DNA of 64,000 nucleotides from Ochrobactrum sp. CM-21-5 (GTDB lineage: Bacteria; Pseudomonadota; Alphaproteobacteria; Rhizobiales; Rhizobiaceae): the NCBI RefSeq assembly GCF_014253075.1, contig NZ_JACLZJ010000003.1, forward strand, positions 310,001 to 374,000. The letters are read 5' to 3'. Below are positions 30,180-37,721 of the stretch, in pieces. Under the pieces are notes generated by a model, which was given only the letters and a program-made list of their open reading frames with translations, was not told the origin of the DNA and made no database searches. The position numbers and the translations under genes are program-made. Each line of letters opens with the position of its first letter. The stretch's first letter is position 1.

Positions 30180-30431
30180 ATGAATGAATCCATTCGGGAG
30201 TTGCTGGCCAAGGTTGGCGGATTACCCGTTGCGGTCAGCGATATTGCTGACGAAGCCGATCTTTATACGGCTGGCCTTTCCTCTTTTGCGTCAGTGCAGT
30301 TGATGCTTGGCCTCGAAGACAAATTCGACGTCGAATTTCCAGATCAGTTCCTGAACCGGAAATCTTTCGCAAGCATCAAAGCCATCGAACAGACGGTAAC
30401 GCAGATTCTCAGGGACAAAGAGGCCGTATAA
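30180..30431 (+). CDS. Stand-alone (amino)acyl carrier protein
   Basis: The 83-aa four-helix carrier protein has its 4'-phosphopantetheine site in AGLSSFASVQLML. By alignment to the ACP DSL motif, Ser35 is the attachment site, with Ser instead of Asp before it and Phe after. The LSSF-type motif differs from fatty-acid AcpP and matches carrier proteins encoded next to amino acid:[carrier protein] ligases. The ATG at 30180 has AGGGGGA upstream. It overlaps the flavoenzyme start by 1 bp, so the two are co-translated. Confidence 0.88.
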   Translation: MNESIRELLAKVGGLPVAVSDIADEADLYTAGLSSFASVQLMLGLEDKFDVEFPDQFLNRKSFASIKAIEQTVTQILRDKEAV

Positions 30432-31603
30432 TGAATGCCGGGGCGGGGAACAGTCTTTCAGAGCGCGCAGGCCGCGTTGCGGCCATAGCGGGTAAATTCG
30501 CCGATAGCGTAGACAAGGAAGGACGCTTTCCGCGTGAGGCAATCGACGCGATGAAAGCCGAGGGCCTGCTTGGCATTCAGGTGCCGTGCGATCTTGGCGG
30601 GGAAAGCGCAGATATCGATCAGACCGCCGAGGTCTGCTGCATTCTGGGGCAATCCTGCGCAGCGAGCGCGATGATCTTCGCCATGCACCACATCAAGCTT
30701 TCCAGTCTTGTGGAACATGGTCAGTCGGTGGAATGGCACCGTAATTTCATGCATCATGTAGCGGATAAGCAATTGCTTCTCGCCTCTGCGACGACCGAAG
30801 GCGGCATCGGCGGCGACTTGCGCAATTCGATCTGCGCCATTGAAGTTGAAGGCGACATCTGTCGCTTGGAAAAGAACGCCACCGTCATTTCTTACGGCAC
30901 CTATGCCGATGCCATCCTCATCACCTCGCGCGCGCATAAAGATGCTGCCTCATCGGATCAGGTGATGACTGTTTTCCTGAAGGACCAGTACACGCTCGAA
31001 AAAACACATGACTGGGATACGCTCGGCATGCGTGGCACTTGCTCGGAAGGCTTCATCTTCCGGGGGGAAGCCGACAAGGTGCAAATCCTGCCCCATCCAT
31101 TTGCTGAAATCGCGGCACAATCGATGCTCGCTCAATCGCATACGCTCTGGAGTTCGCTCTGGTACGGCATCGCCGTCGATGCCGTAAATCGAGCTCAGGC
31201 TTTCGTGCGTGCAGCCGCCAAGCGCAATCCGGGCGCGCCACAACCGGGTGCGCTGCGTGTCGCTGAAGCCGCCAACATGCTGCAAATGCTGAAATCGGAA
31301 ATCATTGCCTGCCTCAAGACATACCGCGACGCAAAGCACCATCCAGACAAGCTGGTCTCGATGGGCTTTGCTATCACGATGAATAATCTCAAGATTGCGA
31401 CATCGCAGACCATTCTCCAGATCATAAACCAAACCATGCTGGTTTGCGGCATCATGGGCTACAAGAATGGCACGCCTTACAGCCTCGGTCGTCATCTGCG
31501 CGACGCTCACTCCGCGCAATTGATGATCTCCAACGAGCGCATCCTTGGCAACACCGCCACCATGCTGCTCATTCACAAGCAGAACACCAGCCTTCTAGGA
31601 TAA
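30431..31603 (+). CDS. Acyl-CoA dehydrogenase-like flavoenzyme of the carrier-protein operon
   Basis: This 390-aa ACAD-fold protein has an N-terminal helical domain with FPREAIDAMKAEGLLGIQVP. A central beta domain (LLLASATTEGGIGGD, WDTLGMRGTCSEGF) follows, then a C-terminal helical domain (ANMLQMLKSEIIACLKTYRDA, GTPYSLGRHLRDAHSAQLMISNERILGNT). FAD binding is expected. Adjacent to a carrier protein and its amino-acid ligase, it may oxidise an aminoacyl-S-carrier intermediate, as prolyl-carrier oxidases do; this is inference. I cannot assign the catalytic base. Confidence 0.82.
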   Translation: MNAGAGNSLSERAGRVAAIAGKFADSVDKEGRFPREAIDAMKAEGLLGIQVPCDLGGESADIDQTAEVCCILGQSCAASAMIFAMHHIKLSSLVEHGQSVEWHRNFMHHVADKQLLLASATTEGGIGGDLRNSICAIEVEGDICRLEKNATVISYGTYADAILITSRAHKDAASSDQVMTVFLKDQYTLEKTHDWDTLGMRGTCSEGFIFRGEADKVQILPHPFAEIAAQSMLAQSHTLWSSLWYGIAVDAVNRAQAFVRAAAKRNPGAPQPGALRVAEAANMLQMLKSEIIACLKTYRDAKHHPDKLVSMGFAITMNNLKIATSQTILQIINQTMLVCGIMGYKNGTPYSLGRHLRDAHSAQLMISNERILGNTATMLLIHKQNTSLLG

Positions 31604-35946: not shown

Positions 35947-37721
35947 CGCTCCAAGGCAAGGGAGCGGATCGCATCGATATAAATCGCGCGTGCATGTTCC
36001 GGTGTCAGATTATGATCTGCGTCAGGAACAACCGCCACCGACACATTCTCAAAACCTTGCACTTTGCCGTTCATTTGATCGAAATAGAAATTGAAATATT
36101 CGCGGCCAGTATCCTTCTCGGCGTAGATGAATGTCAGCGGCACCTGTCGCAGCTTCAACTCTTCGAAAGCGGAGTAGATTGCCCGCCCCTCTAGAGTGCG
36201 GCTGCGAAGCGCCTTACGTGCCAGCCCGCGAATGCGCCCGGCGACACCACGCACCAGATTGCGCGAAATCGAATGAATATCCAGTTCGCCTCGCAGCAAG
36301 CGCTGAAAAGTTTCCAGACGCAGCGCGCGGCTACCATAGTCTTCCAGCGTGCGGTTACTCTCGCGCACGGCATCATCCACCGAGCGTCCGGGTGCCCAAT
36401 AGAGCGTTACGGGATTCGCCAGCACAGCCCCCGAAATGCGTTCGTCGGCTACCGCACATGTAAAACCGAGAAAAGCACCACTGCAACGACCGGCAACAAC
36501 CGGGCGTTCCCAGCCGATAGCGTCGAGATAGTCCAGTGTGTCGGCGACATCCGCCTCAGGTCCGTGGGTGTAAAGCACCTGTTCCGGAATAGCCTGGTTG
36601 GGCGGACTGTCCCCCGCATTCGCGATGTCGAAACGCAAGGAGGCAATCCCCTCACGTGCCAGCTTGCGCGCCATGGCGACAGTTGTGCGTCCCCACCCTA
36701 TGCGGCGGTCATAGGATGACGACAGGAACAGAACCGTCTTGCCCCGCCGCTCGCCCGAAGGCGCGCACAGAACGCCGGACAAGCGTCCATTCGGCCCGAA
36801 TGCAACCGGCGTATCGATGAAGCCATCGCCGCTCAACGTTCCTGTGAAAGCGTTGTTGTCAGGTCTGTTTCCGGCTAGCTGCGAACCGGCAATATCTGCA
36901 ACCCAGCGGACAAGATGGTCGGCTACTTCCAGAGGCAATCGTGAGATAACCGGATTGGAAATCAGTTTATCATAATCCGTAAAAACCTCGACCGTAACAT
37001 CGACGCCGAGCTTTTCCAGATGTGTCGTCAGCTCGGCATCGCTCGGCCGATCCATTCGCGCGAACAAAAGGCATTTGGGGGCAGGTTTAACGCCAAGCGA
37101 AAGAAGATTGATCTTTTTCACATCGACGGCAATTTCCGGCTGCATCTTCAAGGAGGCTATGGCAACGTTGCCCTTGACCCTCTCCTCGTCTGTAAGGCCC
37201 AGATCCGCGTCGACCATGCTCGACCAGACCGCCAACTCGCGTGTATAGAACCGGCCGGAAATGACTGGCGCCAGCAGGGCCAATGCGCCGATACCTTCAA
37301 TACGCGATGCGGTTTCGGCAGCGACGGCCGCTCCGAGGCTCTGACCGATCACCACGACACGGCTTGCTCCCGACAGGGCGCGCGCTTTCTGCGCCGCTTC
37401 AACCAGCGTAGCCCGCCAGAGTTCCAGTCCTTTGGAAAAGTCGATATCGTCTCGCCCGTCGCCGGTGCCCGGCCAGTCGAAACGAAAGGAGGCAACGCCC
37501 CTGTCAGACAGCTTGTCTGCAATGATGCGCCAGAATTTTCGCGTCGTACAAAGCTCCTCAAGTCCCCAGGGGCTTGCAAACACGACGACCGTATCCAGCG
37601 CATTTCCCTGCGCGGGTTGATAAAGCCCCAGCGTGTCACAAAAGACAACGGGACTGGCAGCAGATCGTATAATGCCGCTCAGTTTTCTGGAAGTCGATTC
37701 TCCTTCCACCCTATCGTCCAT
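35943..37721 (-). CDS. Double alpha/beta-hydrolase; second half with Cys nucleophile motif
   Basis: The 592-aa protein carries two alpha/beta-hydrolase domains (about 20-300 and 330-590). The first has the standard elbow VVVIGQSLGAAVAAE (GxSxG). The second has VVAGRCSGAFLGF, with Cys in the nucleophile slot, and a late VPDADHNLTPEHA His. Each half has an oxyanion region (ASPWGLEE; SSSYDRRIGWGR). The ATG at 37721 has GGGGG upstream. Its 3' end overlaps the GH2 gene by 4 bp, tail to tail. A Cys-type esterase or thioesterase could unload the carrier protein. Related halves occur in exosortase-associated hydrolases. Function is inferred. Confidence 0.75.
   Translation of the reverse strand: MDDRVEGESTSRKLSGIIRSAASPVVFCDTLGLYQPAQGNALDTVVVFASPWGLEELCTTRKFWRIIADKLSDRGVASFRFDWPGTGDGRDDIDFSKGLELWRATLVEAAQKARALSGASRVVVIGQSLGAAVAAETASRIEGIGALALLAPVISGRFYTRELAVWSSMVDADLGLTDEERVKGNVAIASLKMQPEIAVDVKKINLLSLGVKPAPKCLLFARMDRPSDAELTTHLEKLGVDVTVEVFTDYDKLISNPVISRLPLEVADHLVRWVADIAGSQLAGNRPDNNAFTGTLSGDGFIDTPVAFGPNGRLSGVLCAPSGERRGKTVLFLSSSYDRRIGWGRTTVAMARKLAREGIASLRFDIANAGDSPPNQAIPEQVLYTHGPEADVADTLDYLDAIGWERPVVAGRCSGAFLGFTCAVADERISGAVLANPVTLYWAPGRSVDDAVRESNRTLEDYGSRALRLETFQRLLRGELDIHSISRNLVRGVAGRIRGLARKALRSRTLEGRAIYSAFEELKLRQVPLTFIYAEKDTGREYFNFYFDQMNGKVQGFENVSVAVVPDADHNLTPEHARAIYIDAIRSLALER

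What the first reader, a model, noticed from the sequence alone, without database searches (positions are those of the whole stretch)
30180..37721. Compact carrier-protein pathway built round an amino acid:[carrier protein] ligase
Five genes (carrier protein, ACAD-like flavoenzyme, class-II-synthetase-like ligase, DUF1839, GH2 glycosidase) overlap or abut. A double hydrolase gene overlaps the last one tail to tail. The ligase has the zinc set C121/E166/C269, at a constant offset of ten from the Bradyrhizobium enzyme's. Seen: order, overlaps and residues. Known: this ligase family loads Gly or Ala on a carrier protein in vitro. Inferred: the set makes or trims an amino-acid-derived product, possibly attached to a glycoside. 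I know of no assigned product.
Basis: partly seen in the sequence, partly recalled or inferred. Interest (0 to 1): 0.88.

Follow-up and report, generated by a model that had tools for sequence, protein, structure and literature searches.

The report
Carrier-protein module aminoacylating a surface glycan
A block of five linked genes, usually with a sixth in the same genome, appears to load a small amino acid onto a carrier protein, oxidise it and attach it to an amino sugar of a bacterial surface polysaccharide, which gives an orphan enzyme family a testable job.

The parts
30180..30431 (+). aminoacyl carrier protein; S35 in GLSSF is the expected phosphopantetheine site
   Evidence: NF005480 119.6 bits, PF00550; 4h2w_C and 2jq4 (Atu2571) 114 bits; S35 in 118 of 119 rows, the other a gap
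30431..31603 (+). acyl-CoA-dehydrogenase-fold flavoenzyme without the dehydrogenase catalytic Glu; probable oxygenase/oxidase of the carrier-bound aminoacyl group
   Evidence: PF02771; best solved match DnmZ 54.9 bits; Glu position is Ile/Val in 57 of 57 homologues
31609..32517 (+). amino acid:[carrier protein] ligase, class II synthetase core; Zn set C121/E166/C269
   Evidence: NF005479 517.3 bits; 4h2w/3mey E 2e-98/3e-93; Zn residues in 139-140 of 140
32508..33506 (+). DUF1839: papain-fold protein, predicted to move the aminoacyl group from carrier protein to an amine; nucleophile C36
33496..35946 (+). GH2 beta-mannosidase-like glycosidase, no hydrophobic segment found; acid/base E420 and nucleophile E501 (numbering from the TTG at 33475; roles by alignment and recollection)
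   Evidence: 5n6u beta-mannosidase E 2e-54; E420 119/120, E501 119/120; hydropathy scan
35943..37721 (-). double alpha/beta hydrolase; N-domain serine lost in most homologues, C-domain Cys413/His570 invariant
   Evidence: hydr2_PEP- and hydr1_PEP-like, both below cut-off; 74-row alignment; fused to a Wzx-type flippase in Rhizobium

Best explanation
The cassette is an aminoacylation module for a surface glycan. Step 1: the synthetase-like ligase activates a small amino acid (Gly or Ala by family) and loads it on the carrier protein (shown for the family in print, inferred here). Step 2: the ACAD-fold flavoenzyme oxidises the carrier-bound aminoacyl group, more likely at nitrogen or by oxygenation than by alpha,beta-desaturation (inferred). 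Step 3: DUF1839, with the fold of CcbD/CtaG/AziU, moves the acyl group from the carrier protein to an amine, probably of an amino sugar (inferred from fold, Cys and gene partners). Step 4: the GH2 enzyme, probably cytosolic, trims or proofreads the glycoside, and the Cys-hydrolase acts near the flippase step on the glycan intermediate (inferred from fusion and neighbourhood). The confidence is for the module as a whole (steps 1 and 3 on a glycan); step 2 as N-oxidation alone about 0.45, step 4 about 0.35.
Against: No enzyme activity or product was seen. In the window no Wzx, Wzy, Wzz or glycosyltransferase homologue of the query set was found in 64 kb, and cassette flanks differ even among the closest loci. 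16 of 39 loci showed no polysaccharide gene of the set; the queries came from 8 of the 39 genomes, leaving 15 of 31 without them, and related genomes are not independent. The difference from type B loci is weak (3 of 13; Fisher 0.05). Type B loci lack DUF1839 and GH2, so those steps are dispensable there. In two genomes the DUF1839 copy beside the ligase lacks the Cys. Sequence similarity to BtrH_N is not significant (E 0.11, 2 of 47). The six genes include no flavin reductase.
Confidence: 0.66

Rival explanations
1. A stand-alone small-molecule pathway: the loaded and oxidised amino acid is joined by DUF1839 to a small amine or aminoglycoside, the GH2 enzyme unmasks a glycosylated product, and the compound is a signal, metallophore or antibiotic.
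For: The CcbD, AziU3/U2 and CtaG relatives serve small natural products (products recalled). The cassette occurs on plasmids too: 59 plasmid records have DUF1839. In the window it stands without glycan genes of the query set. A Priestia plasmid carries CP-ACAD-ligase beside an ATP-grasp protein, thioesterase, alanine permease and racemase.
Against: No exporter or resistance gene recurs at a fixed place beside the cassette across the 39 loci; the hydrolase is fused to a polysaccharide flippase; glycan genes are enriched around it.
Confidence: 0.22
2. The ACAD-like enzyme is a true dehydrogenase making a dehydroamino acid or imine thioester (for example dehydroalanyl), with a base at another place; the rest as in the best explanation.
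For: Its best NCBIfam score is a dehydrogenase (FadE16, 90.6 bits, cut-off 600) and prolyl-PCP dehydrogenase RedW scores 33 bits; most of the 44 solved matches are named dehydrogenases.
Against: Ile/Val at the short-chain Glu position in 57 of 57, and no acidic residue at the alternative helix position in the rows printed; best solved match is DnmZ, an N-oxygenase as recalled. Glycine has no beta carbon.
Confidence: 0.35
3. Aminoacyl transfer to peptidoglycan or its precursors rather than to an exopolysaccharide.
For: Insertions in the adjoining Agrobacterium glycan cluster improve fitness of a yejABEF (peptidoglycan recycling) mutant; PMC10318531 guessed cell-wall glycan processing for DUF1839.
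Against: The same paper found no change in UDP-M5 or UDP-MurNAc in Atu2582 deletions; flippase, Wzz and WecG partners belong to exopolysaccharide or O-antigen routes.
Confidence: 0.08

Closest known systems
Amino acid:[carrier protein] ligases Bll0957 / Atu2573 with aminoacyl carrier protein Atu2571 (PDB 3mey, 4h2w, 2jq4)
   Same: Same ligase family and zinc residues, same carrier protein family; Atu2571-2576 appears to be this cassette (inferred from order)
   Different: Bradyrhizobium-like loci lack DUF1839 and GH2; I found no assigned product for either
CcbD (celesticetin), CtaG (closthioamide), AziU3/U2 (azinomycin), BtrH: papain-fold enzymes working with carrier proteins (products recalled)
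   Same: Predicted fold over 273-287 residues (CcbD, CtaG, AziU3/U2), conserved Cys, carrier protein encoded nearby
   Different: 9-14% identity, separate Pfam family, predicted glycan rather than antibiotic acceptor; the published active-site reading (Cys, Thr/Ser, His) differs
Dlt D-alanylation of teichoic acid (recalled)
   Same: Amino acid loaded on a dedicated carrier protein and put on a surface polymer; weak CP similarity to DltC (28.5 bits)
   Different: Ligase is a class II synthetase relative; transferase is papain-like; an oxidase is included
Iyer et al. 2010, note added in proof (PMC2922099)
   Same: Same gene neighbourhood and the prediction of aminoacyl transfer to a cell-surface amino sugar by the conserved ORF (Atu2574), with monooxygenation
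   Different: Called the redox enzyme Rossmann-fold; the passage gives no fold for the ORF, no flippase fusion and no genome counts
Exosortase-A-associated hydrolases hydr1_PEP / hydr2_PEP
   Same: The two domains of the sixth gene match them, and two hydr1 members share the Cys
   Different: Scores 75 and 68 against cut-offs 168 and 203; joined in one protein here

Membership tests
amino acid:[carrier protein] ligase (NF005479) | family score above curated cut-off | tested here: met
   517.3 bits against 357
amino acid:[carrier protein] ligase (NF005479) | zinc set Cys/Glu/Cys | tested here: met
   C121 139/140, E166 and C269 140/140
amino acid:[carrier protein] ligase (NF005479) | carrier protein encoded beside it | tested here: met
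   CP, ACAD and ligase together in 39 of 39 cassette loci
amino acid:[carrier protein] ligase (NF005479) | loads Gly or Ala on phosphopantetheine | not testable with these tools
   family activity from passages of PMC5370406
papain-fold carrier-protein amide synthetase (CcbD/CtaG type) | overall fold | tested here: met
papain-fold carrier-protein amide synthetase (CcbD/CtaG type) | nucleophilic Cys at the start of a core helix | tested here: met
   C36 starts helix 36-47; 46 of 47; superposition on the CcbD/CtaG Cys not measured
papain-fold carrier-protein amide synthetase (CcbD/CtaG type) | Cys-His-Asp triad | tested here: inconclusive
   H131 and H152 both 47/47, D163 46/47; geometry not measured; print says Cys-Thr/Ser-His
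papain-fold carrier-protein amide synthetase (CcbD/CtaG type) | sequence family BtrH_N (PF14399) | tested here: inconclusive
   E 0.11 at best, 2 of 47 members
papain-fold carrier-protein amide synthetase (CcbD/CtaG type) | acyl transfer from carrier protein to amine | not testable with these tools
   needs assay
acyl-CoA dehydrogenase (classical) | catalytic Glu in the C-terminal domain (place recalled) | tested here: not met
   Ile/Val in 57 of 57 at the SCAD position
group D flavin N-oxygenase | closest sequence match, shared His, flavin reductase partner | tested here: inconclusive
   DnmZ best of 44 solved matches at 54.9 bits; His86 shared with DnmZ and 3m9v; no flavin reductase among the six genes
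GH2 beta-mannosidase | both catalytic Glu | tested here: met
   E420 and E501 in 119 of 120 each, aligned to solved mannosidases; substrate not tested
Dlt system | ANL-type ligase DltA | tested here: not met
   ligase is a class II synthetase relative
exosortase-A-associated hydrolases | family scores above cut-off | tested here: not met
   75.0 against 168.45 and 68.0 against 202.75

The most novel reading that the evidence does not exclude
The cassette puts an N-oxidised aminoacyl group (for example N-hydroxyglycyl or its hydroxamate/oxime) on an amino sugar of a Wzx-dependent surface glycan: a Dlt-like system rebuilt from a tRNA-synthetase relative, a sugar-type N-oxygenase and a CcbD-type transferase, giving plant-associated bacteria a metal- or redox-active coat that explains the pyocyanin tolerance reported for the adjoining Agrobacterium glycan cluster.
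Probability: 0.2. Interest if true: 0.88.

Novelty: new variant of a known kind. Interest (0 to 1): 0.64.

Why it matters
Enzymes of the aa:CP ligase family are reported to load Gly or Ala onto carrier proteins (passages), and in the ten searches of the open library I found no use for the loaded carrier beyond the 2010 prediction. Fold, fusion and neighbourhood evidence now converge on that one use, with a laboratory strain (R. johnstonii 3841) that carries the flippase-fused form and a phenotype reported second-hand for the glycan cluster beside the Agrobacterium cassette.

Tried and rejected
Classical alpha,beta-dehydrogenase for the ACAD-like gene: disfavoured, Glu missing in 57 of 57; kept as a rival. 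Stand-alone natural-product cluster: kept as a rival, disfavoured by the flippase fusion. Phage origin: one weak phage match to the ligase (23% identity). Flanking window genes as part of the system: rejected; of the 80 named loci only 6, all among the 11 closest, show the globin-like, ornithine cyclodeaminase and arginase neighbours, and 5 the DegT/Gfo pair (within about 9 kb). A replacement transferase in Bradyrhizobium-like loci: the gene I took for a GNAT by eye has no Pfam match, so no claim. BtrH_N by sequence: not significant; an implausible family (IL11) scored better there. Active-site geometry of the model was not measured. My gene calls are rough (longest or GC3-scored ORFs), so flank counts rest on homology hits. 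Literature: ten searches of the open library gave no assigned product; Mocibob 2010/2013 and Perry and Newman 2019 were not seen. Only passages were seen of PMC2922099, PMC10318531, PMC9790009, PMC10888616, PMC11941606, PMC6165268, PMC5370406, PMC9437257, PMC6594144 and PMC10769383.
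Full report
Observation. Pfam and NCBIfam support each (GH2 by its accessory domains only). The zinc residues are C121, E166 and C269 and align to the Bradyrhizobium enzyme at a constant offset.

Organism. The closest named loci are Brucella/Ochrobactrum-group genomes at 86-89% DUF1839 identity. The genome is 4.28 Mb, larger than classical Brucella (recalled), so probably an Ochrobactrum-type member. Within its genus the ligase is patchy: 18 of 35 genomes.

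Distribution. The ligase family is in 44 of 397 sampled genomes of the phylum, 33 over cut-off. DUF1839 is in 52 of 297 genomes of the order. All 52 also have the ligase, with at most 454 bases between profile matches, 48 of 52 within 150. Of the 32 other ligase genomes, 8 have DUF1839 and 24 do not. I fetched 39 cassette loci: 31 of the 52, plus those 8. All 39 have CP, ACAD, ligase, DUF1839 and GH2 on one strand, 21 of 39 also the hydrolase in the stretch (three rows there list ACAD before CP because stop-to-stop ORFs were sorted, one search has CP first). Neighbours are within 100 bases in 38 (CP-ACAD), 35 (ACAD-ligase), 34 (ligase-DUF1839) and 28 (DUF1839-GH2) of 38 loci; the largest DUF1839-GH2 gap is 2,616 bases. 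Of 80 named loci, 79 have the five genes and 52 the hydrolase. Thirteen Bradyrhizobium-like or related loci (type B) have ACAD and ligase, 11 of them with a weakly matching CP on the other strand, and no DUF1839 or GH2. The five proteins' pairwise distances correlate at 0.71-0.89 over 38 loci, without a species control.

Ligase and carrier protein. The closest solved structures are 4h2w/3mey for the ligase and 4h2w_C and 2jq4 (Atu2571) for the CP. That such ligases load Gly or Ala on CP phosphopantetheine is from passages of PMC5370406. In a Bradyrhizobium phaR mutant Bll0957 and the ACAD Bll0958 are both listed at threefold (table passage of PMC10888616).

Flavoenzyme. Best solved match is DnmZ, followed by short-chain acyl-CoA dehydrogenases and 3m9v (KijD3 as recalled). 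Aligned to SCAD, the residue at the catalytic Glu (its place recalled) is Ile in 56 and Val in 1 of 57 homologues; the alternative helix position shows no acidic residue in the nine rows printed; His237 and His86 are invariant in the 44 cassette-type sequences; His86 is shared with DnmZ and 3m9v but not SCAD. Group D monooxygenases share the ACAD fold and include N-hydroxylation and carrier-tethered substrates (passages of PMC6165268). I infer oxygenation or N-oxidation rather than desaturation, with modest confidence. Against this: its best NCBIfam score is an acyl-CoA dehydrogenase (FadE16, 90.6 bits, cut-off 600) and RedW scores 33 bits.

GH2 and hydrolase. The GH2 protein aligns with beta-mannosidases and keeps both catalytic Glu in 119 of 120 rows each; a hydropathy scan finds no membrane segment, so it is probably cytosolic (no signal-peptide program was run). 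The hydrolase's first domain has Ser at the nucleophile place in 12 of 74 rows (the window among them), Gly in 57, Arg in 5; the second has Cys413 and His570 in 74 of 74. The second domain resembles hydr1_PEP, and the two hydr1 members that aligned over that site show Cys there; neither domain reaches its family cut-off.

Glycan link. In 26 of 73 hydrolase ORFs near the cassette the open frame exceeds 900 aa. Ten were scanned for membrane segments in the extra N-terminal part: seven Rhizobium-type ones show 13, L035 2, L124 0, L074 0. Pfam finds Polysacc_synt_3 in the two Rhizobium-type proteins tested, L163 (R. johnstonii 3841) and L195, and not in L035, L124 or L074. In L072, L074, L076 and L077 a separate flippase gene lies beside or near the hydrolase. 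In the 18 loci without a nearby hydrolase, a homologue is elsewhere in 18 of 18 genomes. I fetched stretches around 16 of these copies: 15 hold at least one homologue of the polysaccharide query set, 14 a Wzx/Wzz/Wzc/Wzy/WecG type; five of the 16 supplied query genes, and several also contain the cassette. Pfam on ten examples gives GNVR/Wzz, WecG/TagA/CpsF, Wzy_C, Wzc, Polysacc_synt, ManC, acyltransferase-3 and GT4 families, one gene without a match. Around the cassette itself 23 of 39 loci have such a gene, against 0 of 20 control regions from the same genomes, 3 of 13 type B loci and 0 of 8 distant-ligase loci (Fisher 3e-6 against controls, 0.05 against type B). The query genes came from 8 of the 39 genomes; without these it is 15 of 31. 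Related genomes are not independent.

Agrobacterium. In 15 of 15 Agrobacterium-type loci (14 titled so, one R. rhizogenes) a 905-908-aa gene lies downstream, in 10 just after a recognised hydrolase gene; in L119 it is an ABC exporter. Two PF00534 glycosyltransferases lie within about 25 kb of the cassette in each of two Agrobacterium genomes and within 9 kb in R. johnstonii. Counting from CP = Atu2571, my rough gene calls in L233 put the 905-aa gene at 2577 and a GT4 homologue at 2583. PMC9790009 names exporter Atu2577 and glycosyltransferase Atu2583 in a cluster for an uncharacterised glycan whose disruption helps a yejABEF mutant and which was reported as needed for pyocyanin tolerance (passages; the primary paper was not held). 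The Atu numbering of the cassette is my inference, supported by 2jq4 = Atu2571 and Atu2574.

Prior art. [quoted passage not shown] The core idea is therefore not mine. New here, as far as the ten searches show: the linkage counts, the CcbD/CtaG-type fold, the loss of the dehydrogenase base, the Cys hydrolase and its flippase fusion, the glycan-gene enrichment with controls and the link to the Agrobacterium cluster.

Limits. No assay; acceptor and oxidised product are unknown. In the window itself the query set finds only an acyltransferase-3 some 9 kb away. In two genomes with two DUF1839 genes (G210, G274) the copy beside the ligase has Arg (L037) or, by eye, Gln (L048) for the Cys; the second copy of G274 has the Cys, that of G210 was not checked.

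Noticed in passing
L189, L190, L191 (R. gallicum, R. acidisoli plasmids): The cassette lies directly downstream of nif genes (nifD, nifK, nifN, nifX, fdxB) on symbiosis plasmids, which suggests a role in nodules.
   Followed up: partly
L048 9401-10378 and 14235-15494; L037 13135-14118: In two genomes the DUF1839 copy beside the ligase lacks the catalytic Cys (Arg in L037, Gln by eye in L048) and a second DUF1839 gene exists; the second copy of L048 has the Cys.
   Followed up: partly
L176 (Priestia megaterium plasmid): acpS-CP-ACAD-ligase beside a DMT transporter, ATP-grasp protein, thioesterase, alanine permease and alanine racemase, with a D-Ala-D-Ala ligase gene some kb upstream: looks like an alanine-analogue pathway.
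   Followed up: no
L175 (Tsukamurella plasmid): CP and ligase without ACAD or DUF1839 among glycosyltransferases, a polyprenyl glycosylphosphotransferase and a phosphopantetheinyl transferase; a second glycan context for the ligase.
   Followed up: no
window 25859-28120 (-): DegT aminotransferase and Gfo/Idh enzyme nearest to UDP-GlcNAc 3-dehydrogenase (162.8 bits, under cut-off 450): possibly a GnnA/GnnB-like pair for diamino sugars (names recalled).
   Followed up: partly
L190, L192, L193: On three Rhizobium plasmids the GH2 gene is in pieces over several frames, a fragment, or not found, while CP, ACAD, ligase and DUF1839 remain.
   Followed up: partly
window genus: The ligase is present in 18 of 35 genomes of the genus, one of them (69% complete) with a copy in two pieces.
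   Followed up: no
L049-L055, L057-L062: Reduced form: ACAD and ligase, in 11 of 13 with a weakly matching CP on the other strand, no DUF1839 or GH2; what takes the acyl group there is unknown.
   Followed up: partly
L195 3576-6402: In Rhizobium sp. NLR16a efp, epmA and a lysine 2,3-aminomutase-like gene, another synthetase-relative modification, sit just upstream of the cassette.
   Followed up: no
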